Below, in pieces: positions 34,654 through 41,011 of a stretch of 41,078 bases of DNA. Source of the DNA: an uncultured Bacilli bacterium. Its GTDB lineage: Bacteria > Bacillota_I > Bacilli_A > RF39 > UBA660. Location of the stretch: positions 1 to 41,078 of the forward strand of contig CANQHO010000005.1 in assembly GCA_947623815.1 (NCBI GenBank). The letters are read 5' to 3'. The position numbers were made by a program, and so were the translations under genes. How positions within the stretch are numbered: position 1 is the first letter of the stretch; every line of letters begins with the position of its first letter. Under the pieces are notes generated by a model. It made no database searches and had not been told where the DNA came from. It saw only the letters and a program-made list of their open reading frames with translations.

Positions 34654-34674
34654 AAAACTGTTAAAAACAGTTTT
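34654..34674 (-). terminator. Terminator of the ABC transporter gene
   Basis: Leftward AAAACTGTT, loop TTT, AACAGTTTT, then a T-run; it overlaps the stop at 34673. Confidence 0.85.
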
Positions 34675-37600
34675 ATTCAGTTCGAAGAGCAATAACGGGA
34701 TCCTTTTTAGATGCTGCTTTAGCGGGTATTAAACCACCAAGTAAAGTTATAATAATACTAAGTATTACTAACAATAAAGCATTTTTAAAATAAAGGATAA
34801 CATTTAAAGGAATATCGCCAATAAAATGGTGCAAAATAGAATTGATAATTGGAATCACACTATAAGAAACACCAATCCCAATCATTCCCGATAACAAGCC
34901 AATTATAAATGTTTCAGCATTAAAGATTGATGATATATTTCTTTTAGATGCTCCAATTGCTCTTAAAATACCAATTTCTTTAGTTCTTTCATAAACGGAT
35001 ATATAAGTTATAATACCAATCATAAAAGATGATACTACCAAAGAAATAGAAGTAAATGCTATCAATACATAAGTTACTGTATTAACAATTGTTTTAACAG
35101 AATTTATAAGAATTCCTGTCGTATCAGTATAATGAATTACTTTTTCTTCATCATCTTGTTTTTTATTATAATCGTCGATAAACTTTAAAAAGTTTTCTTT
35201 ACCATCAAAACTATCAAAGTAAAAAGACATATAAGTTGGTTCTTCTTTTTCTTGGTAACCTAAAGAAATTAAATTACTAGTAGCCGTTTTCTTCTCATTT
35301 GACATCATGGAAGTAACTAATCTAGTTATTTCATCTTCGGTCATATTAAATTTAAAAGCAGAAGCAATTTTATCTTGGTCGACATTAAAAGCATTAGATA
35401 AACTACTAGTTAAATTAGTCATCATTTCCGATACTTTGGTCAAAACTGTTTTTTTCATAACAGCTTCAGTCATTATTTTAGCCAATTGATCTTCAGTTTT
35501 GATAATTGCGGCACTTTCAACAAATGATTTAGTTACAGTTTCACTAATTGTTTTATCAATAACTACATTGTTTTTTAATTCTTCCGTTGGCATCATACTA
35601 GTATAAGTAGTTATATATACATTTAATAAACTTTTTAGTAGTCCTGTATATGTCTCTTTAAAAGTAGCCGCTGGAATTACATAATTTTTTTCCATCTTAT
35701 TTAAGATATTAGTAACTTCTTTGGTTTTTAAATAATTATTGACTATTGTATCTATATCTTCTGCCTTCACACTACCTTTGATACTATCAAACATACCTTT
35801 AGTAAAAGTATTTAAATTATCAGAAAATGTTTTTTGGGCTTTAGATGTATCGGTTGTTATTGCATCATTTATTTCTTGCATATATTTTTGACTTTGTTTT
35901 TCGATAGCTTTATTATCTATTTTAATATTGAAGGCCTGTTCTAATTTCTTTTTATCAATACTAATTAAATCTTCAAACGATAAATCTAAAGCATTGTTTC
36001 CTTCATCAAATTTTTTGTTGGAAAAAATATCTATATCTTTATTTTCAAGTTGTTTTTTTACTATGTCGGTTTCACTAGCATTATCAATTATATAATCTGT
36101 TAAAGCCCCAGTATAAGAAACTCCTGGTCTTAGTATTGTCGATGTCTCCCCTTCTTTAGGGGCTATTATACCGACAATTTTTAAATTGATGGCCTTATCA
36201 TAAAGATCTTTTAAAGTTTCACTATCTTCACTCATGTTTTCATAAACTTTATATTTGGAGTTATATTTATACATATCAGTTGGTAAAACCAGTTTAAGTT
36301 CTAAATCCATCAATTCTTGATAAGATAAAGTTAATGGTTCATTTTGGATATTTACTTTTTCCCCATTCATTATTTTAGTTACAATAGTAGTAAGTTCTTT
36401 AGTATCTCTTAGTCCTAAAGAATAAACTAATAAATCGGGTATTGTATTTTTATCCGACAAAACTATCATTATCTCATCATATTTTTCGGGTAAACGACCA
36501 GCTAAAATGTCATAAGATTTTTTAATAGCATTTGTGTCACTAGTCATTTTAGTATAAACGGAAGTGAATGATGACATGATACTAGAATTCATCATAGCAC
36601 TAAATGAATCACTAGGATTTAATTTGACGATTTTTTTAGTGGCATCTTTAGTATAAATTAAAGGTTCAACACTATAATAATTTTCGATATTAGAAACGTT
36701 TTGATTTACTTCATTTTGATGATCTTCTAAATATTTTTTAAAACTTTTTAAATCGTTGGTACTTAAGGCTTTTAACATATTAGATATGTATTGTTCTTCT
36801 TTTAAACTACCCTTTTTTCCGGTTTCTTCTTCACTAGGGGTCATAGATAACAACATACTAGTTAAATCAGTTGCCTCTTGCATGATAGTTAAGGGATAAG
36901 AAGTTAAGGTATCTTCTTGGATTTTATCTACATAACTTTGAAAGCCATTAGAAACGGCTTGCACTAAAGCAATTCCAATTATTCCAATTGATCCGGCAAA
37001 GGAAACTAAAATGGTTCTTCCTTTTTTAGTAAGTAAGTTATTTAAAGAAAGCCTAAAAGCCGTTAAAAAACTCATCGATGTTTTTTTAATTTTAGGCATT
37101 TTTTCAATGATATTTTCTTTTTCATCTAAGGGATTTGAGTCTTCAGTAATGACCCCATCTAGTATTTTAATAATCCGATTAGAATAAAGGTTGGCTAAAT
37201 CAGGATTATGAGTAACCATAATAATAAGTTTGTTTTTTGATATTTTTTTTAGAATATCCATAACTTGTTTACTAGTTTTAGTATCCAAAGCCCCCGTTGG
37301 TTCATCGGCTAAGATGATATCAGGATCATTTACTAAGGCTCTAGCTATCGCTACTCTCTGCATTTGCCCACCAGATAATTGATTGGGCTTTTTATGGATT
37401 TGGTCTTTTAATCCAACTTCTTCTAAGGCTTGAATAGCCCTTCTTTTTCTTTCTTTTTTAGAAATACCGCCAATCGTTAAGGCTAGTTCTACATTAGATA
37501 GTATGGTTTGATGGGATATCAAGTTATAACTTTGAAAGACAAAACCTACTCGGTAGTTACGATAAGCATCCCAGTCTCTATTTTTAAATTTTTTGGTGGA

Positions 37601-37801
37601 AATTCCATTGATTATTAAATCTCCTGAGGTATATCTATCTAATCCCCCAATAATGTTTAACAAAGTTGTTTTTCCACAACCACTTTGTCCTAATATTGAT
37701 ACAAATTCACTTTTTCTAAATTTTAAAGTAATTCCTTTTAAGGCTTCGACTTTTTCATTACCTGTTACATAGGTTTTTTTTATGTTTTTAAGTTCTAACA
37801 T
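34673..37801 (-). CDS. ABC transporter, ATPase fused to permease (MacB/LolCDE-like)
   Basis: A 1042-aa membrane protein. Residues 1-220 are the ATPase: Walker A GQSGCGKTT (about 38-46), signature LSGGQMQRVAIARAL (about 142-156), Walker B ILADEPTGALD. One span follows (about 262-285). A very long extracytoplasmic region of about 600 residues, much of it helical, precedes three C-terminal spans with the FtsX-like stretch VYERTKEIGILRAIGASKRN. This is the MacB/FtsX-type fold in which ATP hydrolysis moves the outer domain mechanically. The substrate is unknown; peptide or lipoprotein handling is typical. Monocistronic. Confidence 0.92.
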   Translation of the reverse strand: MLELKNIKKTYVTGNEKVEALKGITLKFRKSEFVSILGQSGCGKTTLLNIIGGLDRYTSGDLIINGISTKKFKNRDWDAYRNYRVGFVFQSYNLISHQTILSNVELALTIGGISKKERKRRAIQALEEVGLKDQIHKKPNQLSGGQMQRVAIARALVNDPDIILADEPTGALDTKTSKQVMDILKKISKNKLIIMVTHNPDLANLYSNRIIKILDGVITEDSNPLDEKENIIEKMPKIKKTSMSFLTAFRLSLNNLLTKKGRTILVSFAGSIGIIGIALVQAVSNGFQSYVDKIQEDTLTSYPLTIMQEATDLTSMLLSMTPSEEETGKKGSLKEEQYISNMLKALSTNDLKSFKKYLEDHQNEVNQNVSNIENYYSVEPLIYTKDATKKIVKLNPSDSFSAMMNSSIMSSFTSVYTKMTSDTNAIKKSYDILAGRLPEKYDEIMIVLSDKNTIPDLLVYSLGLRDTKELTTIVTKIMNGEKVNIQNEPLTLSYQELMDLELKLVLPTDMYKYNSKYKVYENMSEDSETLKDLYDKAINLKIVGIIAPKEGETSTILRPGVSYTGALTDYIIDNASETDIVKKQLENKDIDIFSNKKFDEGNNALDLSFEDLISIDKKKLEQAFNIKIDNKAIEKQSQKYMQEINDAITTDTSKAQKTFSDNLNTFTKGMFDSIKGSVKAEDIDTIVNNYLKTKEVTNILNKMEKNYVIPAATFKETYTGLLKSLLNVYITTYTSMMPTEELKNNVVIDKTISETVTKSFVESAAIIKTEDQLAKIMTEAVMKKTVLTKVSEMMTNLTSSLSNAFNVDQDKIASAFKFNMTEDEITRLVTSMMSNEKKTATSNLISLGYQEKEEPTYMSFYFDSFDGKENFLKFIDDYNKKQDDEEKVIHYTDTTGILINSVKTIVNTVTYVLIAFTSISLVVSSFMIGIITYISVYERTKEIGILRAIGASKRNISSIFNAETFIIGLLSGMIGIGVSYSVIPIINSILHHFIGDIPLNVILYFKNALLLVILSIIITLLGGLIPAKAASKKDPVIALRTE

Positions 37802-37875: not shown

Positions 37876-38373
37876 TTATGTTTTCCGATATTTTAAATAT
37901 CTTTTTTTATAAATTTCTAAATCTTTTTCTTGATAATAGGCTATTACATTTAATACATCTTGGTAATTTTGAAATTGGTATTTAAATTTTTCAATTTCTT
38001 CTTTAGTTAATTTATAGCCCATTAAAAATCTTTTAGCCCGTTCCGGATGAAGATTTAAACCAGTTTCAATGATTTCTTTTCTAGATAGTTCTCTAATTAT
38101 AGATAATTTTTCTACTGCGTACATATCATAATAACCATAGTATTCATCATTGTATTTCTTAACTAAACCACTACCTTTTACTTGGCATATTGTAATTGGG
38201 GTTTTAAAGGAATCATAATAACGTAAAGTGTCTTCGATATTTTTACATAAGTGGTAACCTTTTTTTCCAAAAATTAGTTTTCCTGTATTTACATAAATTT
38301 TTCCAATCTCTAATTGTTCTTGATATCTATTTTTTAAACCTTTTTCCAAACTTTTATAGCCTATTACTTCCAT
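37876..38373 (-). CDS. DUF7666-like hypothetical protein
   Basis: A 165-aa soluble protein from ATG 38373, chosen because GGTGG precedes it; upstream in-frame codons up to 38409 would add 12 residues with no ribosome site. The first half (GYKSLEKGLKNRYQ, GKIYVNTGKLIFGKKGYHLC, then EDTLRYYD) resembles the DUF7666 pattern of phage and bacterial proteins: a G-x-x-Y opening, G-x-x-Y-x-x-x-G and K-x-G-x-H-x-C. Its function is unknown. It stands alone between the ABC transporter and ftsK. Confidence 0.6.
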   Translation of the reverse strand: MEVIGYKSLEKGLKNRYQEQLEIGKIYVNTGKLIFGKKGYHLCKNIEDTLRYYDSFKTPITICQVKGSGLVKKYNDEYYGYYDMYAVEKLSIIRELSRKEIIETGLNLHPERAKRFLMGYKLTKEEIEKFKYQFQNYQDVLNVIAYYQEKDLEIYKKRYLKYRKT

Positions 38374-38407
38374 AAAACCACCGAGAATTATTATAACATT
38401 TATATGC

Positions 38408-38436
38408 AATAAACACTAGTTTTTCTAGTGTTTATT
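38408..38436 (-). terminator. Stem-loop at the ftsK stop
   Basis: AATAAACACTAG (38408-38419) pairs exactly with CTAGTGTTTATT (38425-38436). The stem is strong, but no T-run follows leftward, so terminator function is uncertain. Confidence 0.5.
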
Positions 38437-40678
38437 CTTCATTGGTATCTTCTTTATTTACTAAAACTTCTCTTGGTTTAGATCCTAAACTAGGTCCTAC
38501 TATTCCTCTTTCTTCTAGTAAGTCCATGGCTCTAGCGGCTCTATTGAAACCAATTTTGAATTTTCTTTGTAATGATGAGGTACTAGCCTTTCTACTTGAT
38601 ACGACAAATTCTACAATTTGATCGTATAATGGTTCTTCCGTAGCATCTTGCTCATCAACCATGGTGGTAGCACCTTTACTTTCTTGATCTTCTAATAATT
38701 TTTCATTGTATTTAGCCTTTTGTTGGTTAATGGTATAATTAGCCACTTTTTTAATTTCATCATCACTTAGGAAAGTTCCTTGAACTCTAGTCGGGATATT
38801 TTCCCCTTGCATTTTAAATAACATATCCCCTTTTCCTAATAATTTTTCGGCTCCTGGGGAATCTAATATCGTCCTTGAATCGATTTGCGATGATACGGCA
38901 AAGGCAATCCTTGATGGGATATTGGCTTTGACAACACCGGTGATGACATCGGTACTTGGTCTTTGGGTCGCAACAATTAAATGAATACCAGCGGCTCTGG
39001 CCATTTGGGTAATTCGCATAATTGAGTCTTCTACTTCTTTAGCGGCTACCAACATCAAATCGGCAAGTTCATCGATAATAACTACGATAAATGGCATTTT
39101 TTTCATTTGGTCATTACTTGGTCTTTTTTTGTTTTCTTTATCGACTAATTCGTTATATCCGGCAATGTTTTTGGTTCCTGTTCGACTAAATAATTCATAT
39201 CTATCTTCCATTTCTACAACAATGTTTTTTAAGACAGTGTTAGCCTTTTTAGCATCGGTTACTACCGGAGTATATAGATGGGGTACACATTCATACATAG
39301 AAAGTTCTACTTTTTTCGGATCGACTAAAACTAATTTTACTTCATCGGGTTTGGTTCGCATTAAAATGGATACGATGATACTGTTGATACATACTGATTT
39401 ACCACTACCAGTCGAACCGGCTACTAATAAATGGGGTGTTTTGTTTATTTCCATAAATACTGGTTTACCCATGATGTTTCTTCCTAAGGTTACTAGTAAT
39501 TTAGAGTCTTTATATTGTTTTGGTATACTATCTAAAAGTTCTCTAACTGTTACCATGGATGTTACTTTATTTGGTGTTTCAATACCGATGGTGGAACGAC
39601 CTGGTATTGGGGCTTCAATCCTGATATCTTTAGCCGCTAAGGCTAAGGCAATTTCTTTATTCAAACTTTGTACTTTAGATAGTTTGGTTCCTGATTTAAT
39701 ACGCATTTCATATTGGGTTACGGCTGGTCCCACGTTATAGTCAATTACTTCTCCGACAATGTTAAAGTCGCGCAATACTTGTTCGATAATGGTTTTATTG
39801 TTTTCAATTGTTTCTTTACTTTCCACACTTTTCTTTTTGGGTGGTTCATTTAAAAGATTTCTTGGTGGTAATAAATATTTTTGTTTGACTGGTTCTTCGA
39901 TTATTTCTTCTTCTTTTTCTTCAATTTTTTCTTCTATTTCTTTTGGTTCTTTACTTTCCATTTTAGCTATTCGTTTTAAATCGGAAAGGGTTAAAACAAC
40001 AGTTCTTTCTTCTTCATCTTTGTCATCAACTTTTTCAACTGGTTCTTTTTCCTCTTCTTCATCGTCATCGGAACTTTCAATTATTTTTTCTTTATGATGT
40101 GGTTTTACTTTTCCAATTATTTTACTAAATAAATCGGCAATCGATATATCGGTTATTAAAACAATACTTCCTATCATTAAAGCAATAGTAGTAATTATAG
40201 TTCCGGGTATGGCAAGTAATGATGAAAAGGTGGCCGCAAAAAAGGCACCAATCATTCCTCCACAGATATTACTGATACTGGCAATTTCCATCCGATGACC
40301 GGCTTGTTGCATAAATACGTTGACAGTTTCAGTTATTATAGCCGCAAAACCTTTTAGGTCATGACTACTGATATATTTTATATGGGAAAGGATTAAAATA
40401 CTGATTACAAGGATATATATACCAATCATTTTAGATGTTAAAAAGTCGGGTAATTTTCTTTTGGCAATCATGTATCCACCAATGATTATTAAAGCCAAAA
40501 ATAAAAATATATACCAAGTTCCTACTAAAAAAACGGCAAAGTTAGTTACAAATACTCCGACAATTCCGGCTTGAATTATTCCTACTAAGGAAATAATTAT
40601 CATGGCTAAGCCAATTAGTTCTATTTTATAATTTAATCCTTCGTCTTTTTTTTCTTTTTGTTTTTTCTTTTTTGCCAT
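38432..40678 (-). CDS. ftsK: DNA translocase FtsK/SpoIIIE
   Basis: A 748-aa membrane-anchored DNA pump. Four N-terminal spans (about 25-190), a Glu/Lys-rich linker, then the motor: Walker A VAGSTGSGKSVCIN (about 425-438), Walker B FIVVIIDELADLM, and ATQRPSTDVITG. The C-terminal gamma domain is FKIGFNRAARAMDLLEERGI, which reads KOPS/SRS sites. It moves chromosome ends at division near dif and fills the forespore. ATG 40678 follows GGAGGATAG. In Xer systems FtsK activates XerCD at dif, so it bears on the prophage site in this window. Confidence 0.96.
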   Translation of the reverse strand: MAKKKKQKEKKDEGLNYKIELIGLAMIIISLVGIIQAGIVGVFVTNFAVFLVGTWYIFLFLALIIIGGYMIAKRKLPDFLTSKMIGIYILVISILILSHIKYISSHDLKGFAAIITETVNVFMQQAGHRMEIASISNICGGMIGAFFAATFSSLLAIPGTIITTIALMIGSIVLITDISIADLFSKIIGKVKPHHKEKIIESSDDDEEEEKEPVEKVDDKDEEERTVVLTLSDLKRIAKMESKEPKEIEEKIEEKEEEIIEEPVKQKYLLPPRNLLNEPPKKKSVESKETIENNKTIIEQVLRDFNIVGEVIDYNVGPAVTQYEMRIKSGTKLSKVQSLNKEIALALAAKDIRIEAPIPGRSTIGIETPNKVTSMVTVRELLDSIPKQYKDSKLLVTLGRNIMGKPVFMEINKTPHLLVAGSTGSGKSVCINSIIVSILMRTKPDEVKLVLVDPKKVELSMYECVPHLYTPVVTDAKKANTVLKNIVVEMEDRYELFSRTGTKNIAGYNELVDKENKKRPSNDQMKKMPFIVVIIDELADLMLVAAKEVEDSIMRITQMARAAGIHLIVATQRPSTDVITGVVKANIPSRIAFAVSSQIDSRTILDSPGAEKLLGKGDMLFKMQGENIPTRVQGTFLSDDEIKKVANYTINQQKAKYNEKLLEDQESKGATTMVDEQDATEEPLYDQIVEFVVSSRKASTSSLQRKFKIGFNRAARAMDLLEERGIVGPSLGSKPREVLVNKEDTNEE

Positions 40679-40740
40679 ACAACTATCCTCCATATTTATT
40701 GTATCAAATAATCTTTAGAAAATCTATTATTTTGAAAAAA

Positions 40741-40935
40741 AGATACTGTTTTTTTCAGCATCTATTGTCCAACAAAAAGCAGGAGCAAGAAATAACGATA
40801 AAAACCTGATCTCCCAGGTGGGCACTACATGGCTTATTTTAGGATCCTTATAAATATAAGTATTCAACACCACAAGTCAATTAAGTTCCCAATCGTTATA
40901 TTTTAGTAGGTTTTTCAAATTAACCTTACTCCTGT
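40741..40935 (-). ncRNA. Structured RNA of about 195 nt, 6S-like candidate
   Basis: Leftward: an extended -10 TGTTATAAT (TATAAT at 40942-40947) predicts a start near 40935. A closing stem pairs CAGGAGTAAG (from 40925-40934) with CTTGCTCCTG (from 40780-40789). ATAACGAT can pair with ATCGTTAT, and AAAAACCT with AGGTTTTT, which cross each other, so these are alternatives or a pseudoknot. It ends in AGATGCTG / CAGTATCT (40741-40763) plus T7. Length and closing stem fit 6S RNA, but I cannot confirm the family. Confidence 0.55.
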
Positions 40936-41011
40936 AACTTAATTATAACATAGTTAATTTATTTCGCCTAGTCTTTTTTGAATTTTTTGTTTAAAATTTG
41001 ATTTGAACAAA

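What the first reader, a model, noticed from the sequence alone, without database searches (positions are those of the whole stretch)
40741..40935. Stand-alone structured RNA with crossing helices upstream of ftsK
It has an extended -10, a 10-bp closing stem, two 8-bp pairings that cross each other (pseudoknot or switch) and a terminator. Length fits 6S RNA, but the crossing pairs are unusual for a simple rod, so this may be another RNA class, or a switch controlling ftsK.
Basis: partly seen in the sequence, partly recalled or inferred. Interest (0 to 1): 0.52.

Follow-up and report, generated by a model that had tools for sequence, protein, structure and literature searches.

The report
6S RNA with conserved refolding switch
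The structured RNA upstream of ftsK is a 6S RNA, the known RNA that parks on bacterial RNA polymerase, and its two "crossing" pairings look like the two alternative folds of the known polymerase-release switch, kept in many relatives.

Summary
The feature is real and lies on the minus strand (about 40935 down to 40775, or 40741 with a second terminator). It is a 6S RNA: it matches Rfam RF00013 full length at 46.3 bits (cut-off 46.4, E 2.6e-8). Its two same-genus orthologues pass the cut-off (47.2 and 48.1), and 84 of 98 genomes of the family carry a 6S hit. The second corresponds to the "central bubble collapse helix" described for B. subtilis 6S-1 and proposed for Aquifex, formed when product RNA opens P2. 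Across 88 relatives this second helix is supported by compensatory change: true partners pair better than swapped ones in all 20,000 permutations, and 78 of 88 can form it. A 3' central-bubble hairpin that takes the two G of P2 forms in 72 of 88. So the RNA carries both an E. coli-like hairpin and a B. subtilis-like collapse helix, whose 3' strand lies at or just beyond the edge of P2. Control of ftsK is not supported: ftsK follows 6S in 5 of 88 loci, a ThiF/TcdA-like gene in 40 of 88. A known RNA with a modest structural variation.

The parts
40942..40950 (-). extended -10 promoter element TGTTATAAT of the 6S gene
   Evidence: sequence; TGNTANANT-like word in the 32 nt upstream of 75 of 88 relatives
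40778..40935 (-). 6S RNA (ssrS), Rfam RF00013 match over model 1-187
   Evidence: 46.3 bits, gathering 46.4, E 2.6e-8; orthologues of two same-genus genomes 47.2 and 48.1 bits
40925..40934 (-). closing stem P1, 5' strand (10 bp)
40780..40789 (-). closing stem P1, 3' strand
40908..40915 (-). P2 5' strand AAAAACCU (first crossing helix)
   Evidence: part of the canonical stem of the Rfam model next to the central bubble
40800..40807 (-). P2 3' strand AGGUUUUU
40906..40906 (-). predicted template C for the first nucleotide (G) of the product RNA
   Evidence: inference from position: C of the conserved GAC/UAC directly 3' of P2; B. subtilis uses C40 (PMC8876501, passages)
40892..40899 (-). distal 5' central bubble AUAACGAU, 5' strand of the collapse helix (second crossing helix)
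   Evidence: pairs with 40792-40799, supported by partner-swap tests
40792..40799 (-). 3' strand of the collapse helix, AUCGUUAU, directly 3' of P2
40804..40819 (-). 3' central-bubble hairpin ACCUGG-GAGA-UCAGGU, competes with P2 for AGGU
   Evidence: MFE; 72 of 88 relatives form a hairpin using both G of P2
40820..40890 (-). internal (apical) arm, GGG...CCC
40774..40778 (-). U5 run after the closing stem: likely first terminator
   Evidence: sequence; T run there in 81 of 88 relatives
40741..40763 (-). second terminator hairpin followed by a T run
40698..40703 (-). -10 TACAAT (extended, TGATACAAT) of ftsK, separate from 6S
   Evidence: sequence, inference
38432..40678 (-). ftsK, likely start at 40678 behind GGAGGA (40693 is the first ATG)
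   Evidence: NCBIfam FtsK model E 1.3e-135, below its curated score cut-off

Best explanation
It is the single 6S RNA of this uncultured gut Bacilli-type genome. In its ground state it is the usual rod: closing stem, P2 (AAAAACCU/AGGUUUUU), open central bubble, internal arm. In that form it mimics an open promoter and occupies housekeeping RNA polymerase. When nucleotides are plentiful the polymerase starts a short product RNA on the template C at 40906 and transcribes into P2. The product RNA covers the 5' strand of P2 and frees the 3' strand. Two helices can then form and close the bubble: the hairpin ACCUGG-GAGA-UCAGGU, which takes the G residues of P2, and the collapse helix AUAACGAU/AUCGUUAU. 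The RNA leaves the polymerase. The two crossing helices are thus most likely alternatives in time, not one static pseudoknot. Shown here: 6S identity, conservation and compensatory change of the collapse helix, hairpin conservation, and predicted folding that moves toward the collapsed state when the product-RNA footprint is blocked. Inferred from E. coli and B. subtilis work: polymerase binding, product RNA synthesis, release.
For: 6S: 46.3 bits, E 2.6e-8, full length; same-genus orthologues 47.2 and 48.1, above 46.4; 84 of 98 family genomes; 61 of 98 over the cut-off; one copy. Collapse helix: 5' bubble against the segment 3' of P2, native mean -6.38 against -4.34 +/- 0.19 kcal/mol for swapped partners, 0 of 20,000, n = 88; 0 of 20,000 also for 47 sequences under 65% identity; 78 of 88 with at least 5 bp and -4 kcal/mol. 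Neighbour contrasts 29 better, 6 worse of 38, p 1.2e-4; a wider first definition gave 27 against 12 of 42, p 0.024. Position scan: the 5' bubble pairs with positions 2-12 after the GG of P2, while the stretch 5' of P2 pairs further out, 8-20. Hairpin halves z -10.2, 72 of 88 use both G. Blocking a 13-nt product-RNA footprint raises sequences with at least 4 expected collapse pairs from 34 to 68 of 88. In the window the two states are equal in energy, -37.9 against -37.8. Known mechanism: PMC8876501, PMC4227106, PMC12005410.
Against: The window's own score is 0.1 bit under the Rfam cut-off, and no match in the window reached it. 10 of 88 relatives do not reach the collapse-helix threshold. Contrasts include 6 of 38 and 12 of 42 pairs that go the wrong way. 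In free RNA the predicted ensemble already favours the collapse helix over P2 in the window (5.3 expected pairs, P2 28% paired), so the ground state is not clearly the rod by thermodynamics alone. In B. subtilis an engineered extra 3' bubble hairpin hinders release (PMC8876501), which sits badly with a hairpin that helps. No transcript, polymerase binding or product RNA was measured.
Confidence: 0.86

Rival explanations
1. 6S RNA in which P2 and the collapse helix form together as a true pseudoknot in the free RNA, a latched state that cannot bind polymerase until opened.
For: The two helices share few or no nucleotides: measured from GGUUUU, the collapse helix starts at or beyond the end of P2 in 29 of 81 loci and overlaps it by 1-2 nt in 52 of 81 (7 of 88 without a clear helix left out). 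In the window they are adjacent, 40800/40799.
Against: The strand joining the two 5' halves has median 7 nt and is 5 nt or less in 16 of 81 loci, which is short to span about 13 stacked pairs with no linker on the other side (inference). An open 5' bubble is needed in the bound state. The hairpin of 72 of 88 loci competes with P2.
Confidence: 0.1
2. A cis-acting leader or switch that controls ftsK.
For: The RNA ends 48 to 80 nt before ftsK on the same strand, and ftsK follows in the same genus too.
Against: Two terminators and a separate extended -10 lie between them. ftsK is the next gene in 5 of 88 loci, a ThiF/TcdA-like gene in 40 of 88. Full-length 6S match.
Confidence: 0.02
3. A non-6S RNA of a new class that resembles 6S by chance.
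For: Score just under the curated cut-off.
Against: E 2.6e-8 over the whole model, orthologues above the cut-off, family-wide occurrence, extended -10 in 75 of 88.
Confidence: 0.02

Closest known systems
Bacillus subtilis 6S-1 RNA (bsrA) and its central bubble collapse helix
   Same: Rod with P2 next to the central bubble, 3' bubble hairpin, distal 5' bubble pairing back over P2 after product-RNA invasion; template C for a product RNA starting with G (PMC8876501, introduction, passages and figure legends).
   Different: There the collapse helix is described as using the 3' strand of the P2 region. Here the matching strand lies at the outer edge of P2 or beyond it, in its own stretch between P2 and the next closing-stem helix. 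The B. subtilis sequence itself was not fetched, so this comparison rests on the paper's wording.
Escherichia coli 6S RNA with its release hairpin
   Same: A 3' bubble hairpin that takes the 3' strand of P2 (as described in PMC8876501).
   Different: The E. coli hairpin is 9 bp and no collapse helix is described there; here both elements occur, hairpin median 6 bp.
Aquifex aeolicus 6S RNA, proposed central bulge collapse helix
   Same: Same proposed refolding (PMC4227106, passages).
   Different: Other phylum; the helix there is a proposal, here it has comparative support from 88 loci.

Membership tests
6S RNA (RF00013) | match to the covariance model of sequence and rod structure | tested here: met
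   46.3 bits, E 2.6e-8, model 1-187; 0.1 bit under the gathering score, while same-genus orthologues reach 47.2 and 48.1
6S RNA (RF00013) | closing stem, central bubble, internal arm; about 160-200 nt; own promoter and terminator | tested here: met
6S RNA (RF00013) | usually one copy, conserved in relatives | tested here: met
   one copy; 84 of 98 family genomes
6S RNA (RF00013) | binds housekeeping RNA polymerase holoenzyme | not testable with these tools
   needs co-purification or gel shift
6S RNA (RF00013) | template for short product RNAs | not testable with these tools
   candidate template C at 40906 by position only
6S with B. subtilis-type collapse helix | distal 5' bubble pairs with the 3' strand at P2 after product-RNA invasion | tested here: met
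   pairing supported by partner swap, 0 of 20,000, and by constraint folding; that product RNA triggers it was not tested
6S with E. coli-type release hairpin | extended 9-bp 3' bubble hairpin that forms only after P2 opens | tested here: inconclusive
   hairpin uses both G of P2 in 72 of 88, median 6 bp, but is predicted partly formed already in free RNA
ftsK leader regulator | transcribed into and conserved next to ftsK | tested here: not met
   terminators between; ftsK next in 5 of 88 loci

The most novel reading that the evidence does not exclude
In a large clade of uncultured gut Bacilli-type bacteria, 6S RNA carries a two-part release device under strong selection: a P2-stealing hairpin together with a collapse helix whose 3' strand is a dedicated element outside P2. 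P2 and the collapse helix therefore cross without competing for the same bases, so the RNA can pass through (or rest in) a transient pseudoknot that nucleates strand exchange and sets how few product-RNA nucleotides are needed for release.
Probability: 0.2. Interest if true: 0.58.

Novelty: new variant of a known kind. Interest (0 to 1): 0.4.

Why it matters
The collapse helix of 6S RNA rests, in the papers read here, on probing and mutants of B. subtilis 6S-1 and a proposal for Aquifex. Here 88 relatives from one bacterial family give independent evolutionary support that this second fold is selected. They also suggest that the E. coli-type hairpin and the B. subtilis-type helix, which are contrasted in print (PMC12005410), can be parts of one device. 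That makes the release step testable by paired compensatory mutants. It also shows that crossing pairs near a gene can be the two states of a known RNA and need not signal a new class.

Tried and rejected
Rejected: new RNA class; ftsK switch; a plus-strand RNA (promoter, model match and terminators all lie on the minus strand). Weak Rfam hits HrrF, mir-190, ZNRD1-AS1 and psRNA6 in the 429-base scan (E 1.8 to 9.9) were taken as chance.

First partner-swap script used word patterns as anchors and dropped 38 of 88 loci; its result on 50 loci was the same in direction (-5.79 against -3.79, 0 of 10,000). It was replaced by alignment anchors with all 88 kept. The 14 of 98 family genomes without a hit were not searched further with a family-specific model. 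No formal R-scape test was run. The class-wide test used 33 loci outside the family returned, including two second copies from genomes already represented; hits returned without a locus were not fetched; 3 of the 33 were dropped for lack of anchors, leaving 30 (native -2.61 against -1.16 +/- 0.20, 0 of 20,000). Individual rows there vary widely, several at 0.

Full report
What is there. The finding lies on the minus strand, although it was given without one. Reading down from 40950 there is an extended -10 (TGTTATAAT, 40950-40942), an RNA start near 40935, a 10-bp closing stem, the two crossing 8-bp pairings, a U5 run after the closing stem (40778-40774) and a further terminator hairpin (40763-40741). 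The two crossing pairings are perfect Watson-Crick matches. In 500 dinucleotide shuffles of the same 195 bases, 6 contain a crossing pair of that quality; if G-U pairs are admitted 442 do. The single sequence is thus suggestive only. The 209-nt strand folds better than all but 1 of 200 shuffles (z -2.42).

What it is. No Rfam family reaches its gathering score anywhere in the window. With an E-value threshold the stretch 40935-40778 minus matches 6S RNA, RF00013, from model position 1 to 187 at 46.3 bits, 0.1 bit below the cut-off, E 2.6e-8. The genome has no second match at E up to 1. The orthologues of two same-genus genomes, found by DNA similarity (96% and 78% identity), score 47.2 and 48.1 bits, above the cut-off. 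In the family 84 of 98 genomes have a match at E up to 0.01, 61 of 98 over the cut-off; in the sampled order 52 of 60, class 60 of 120, phylum 16 of 120, all three at E up to 0.001 and overlapping in part. The organism is an uncultured gut Bacilli-type bacterium.

Which strands are which. In the Rfam alignment the first crossing helix (AAAAACCU/AGGUUUUU) falls on the canonical stem that borders the central bubble, P2. The second joins the distal 5' bubble, just before the GGG of the internal arm, to the stretch just 3' of P2. That is where B. subtilis 6S-1 RNA makes its "central bubble collapse helix" after product RNA has opened P2 (PMC8876501: introduction, passages and figure legends read). 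Such a helix is also proposed for Aquifex (PMC4227106, passages), and a 2025 paper contrasts the E. coli hairpin with the B. subtilis collapse helix (PMC12005410, passages).

Is the second helix selected? 88 loci were compared: 86 matches in 84 genomes and two. The segment between P2 and the internal arm (X) was paired with the segment 3' of the P2 G residues (Y), each with its own partner and with partners of other genomes. Native mean -6.38 kcal/mol; swapped -4.34, sd 0.19; 0 of 20,000 permutations as good. For 47 sequences under 65% identity: -5.78 against -3.87, sd 0.27, 0 of 20,000. 78 of 88 form at least 5 bp at -4 kcal/mol or better. Disjoint nearest-neighbour pairs whose Y differ: 27 favour the native partners and 12 the swapped ones out of 42 (p 0.024); with the narrower segment, 29 and 6 out of 38 (p 1.2e-4). 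Distinct helices seen include ACGAT/ATCGT, GTGAT/ATCAC and TCGAA/TTCGA. Outside the family, 30 of 33 loci tested gave -2.61 against -1.16, sd 0.20, 0 of 20,000, with wide spread.

Where the 3' strand sits. Sliding an 8-nt window over Y, X pairs best with positions 2-12 (z -12.6 and -12.9). The 14 nt 5' of P2 pair with positions 8-20 (z -18.7 at 10-18) and not with 0-12. So the collapse strand has its own place between P2 and the next closing-stem helix. Measured from GGUUUU it overlaps P2 by 1-2 nt in 52 of 81 loci and by none in 29 of 81 (7 of 88 without a clear helix left out). B. subtilis is described as using the 3' strand of the P2 region; I did not fetch that sequence, so this difference is a reading of the paper's text.

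The hairpin. The 3' bubble can fold on itself (window: ACCUGG-GAGA-UCAGGU). Its halves prefer their own partners (z -10.2), and in 72 of 88 loci the hairpin takes both G of P2. Hairpin and collapse helix are nested and compatible; each opposes P2. The predicted MFE of the window holds both, and a fold with P2 forced is 0.1 kcal/mol away (-37.8 against -37.9). Blocking a 13-nt product-RNA footprint raises expected collapse pairs from a mean of 3.08 to 5.38, and loci with at least 4 from 34 to 68 of 88. The footprint assumes that synthesis starts on the C of the conserved GAC/UAC, by analogy with C40 of B. subtilis.

Switch or pseudoknot. The linker between the two 5' strands has median 7 nt and is 5 nt or shorter in 16 of 81 loci, little for spanning two stacked helices that have no linker on the other side. 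With the hairpin competing for P2, alternation is the simpler reading. A transient pseudoknot is not excluded.

ftsK. Two terminators and a separate extended -10 (TGATACAAT) with its own GGAGGA lie between 6S and ftsK. Among 88 loci the next forward gene is ftsK in 5 (own genus plus two more genera) and ThiF/TcdA-like in 40, by an N-terminal motif. One of the latter was checked: best NCBIfam model TcdA, 150 bits, under its cut-off of 304. A 6S next to the B. subtilis TcdA homologue yrvM is recalled, not tested.

In print. Searches of the held library for 6S RNA with "central bubble collapse helix", "bulge collapse", "pseudoknot" and "covariation" showed no comparative test of the collapse helix in the listings and passages seen. 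The primary 2012 paper and the 2014 survey of 6S distribution are not held, so I cannot say that it is absent from print; from memory the 2012 paper suggested wider conservation.

Verdict. A 6S RNA, ordinary in kind. The crossing helices are real and look like the two states of the known release switch, with clear evolutionary support and a modest change of layout.

Noticed in passing
L004 1762-1899 (minus), G002; own genome C30 and C10: An RT-14 RNA (RF02921, 49.9 bits, cut-off 48.1) lies about 100 nt upstream of 6S in the same-genus genome G002, with ORFs that look like a diversity-generating retroelement cassette (small helical protein, variable-protein C-terminus; by eye). The window's genome has five weaker RT-14 hits, three on contig 30 beside a reverse transcriptase (C30:12710-13312).
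   Followed up: partly
L167, L168, L169, L170, L174, L175, L179: Other families of the class carry tandem 6S copies: four in G165, three in G171, two each in G147, G157, G137, G154 and G134.
   Followed up: no
class sample: Several families with small genomes (f4, f7, f10, f15) gave no 6S hit among the rows listed, which fits loss in the most reduced lineages.
   Followed up: no
window 34673-37801 (minus): 1042-aa fused ABC transporter: LolD/MacB-like ATPase domain followed by a long permease part.
   Followed up: no
window 37876-38409 (minus): ORF of up to 177 aa between ftsK and the ABC transporter; a 164-aa stretch of it has no NCBIfam match.
   Followed up: no
9 of the 88 6S loci, e.g. L039, L043, L050, L055: A protein of about 270-290 aa starting with LPIVNRNR-like residues recurs as the downstream neighbour of 6S; not identified.
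   Followed up: no
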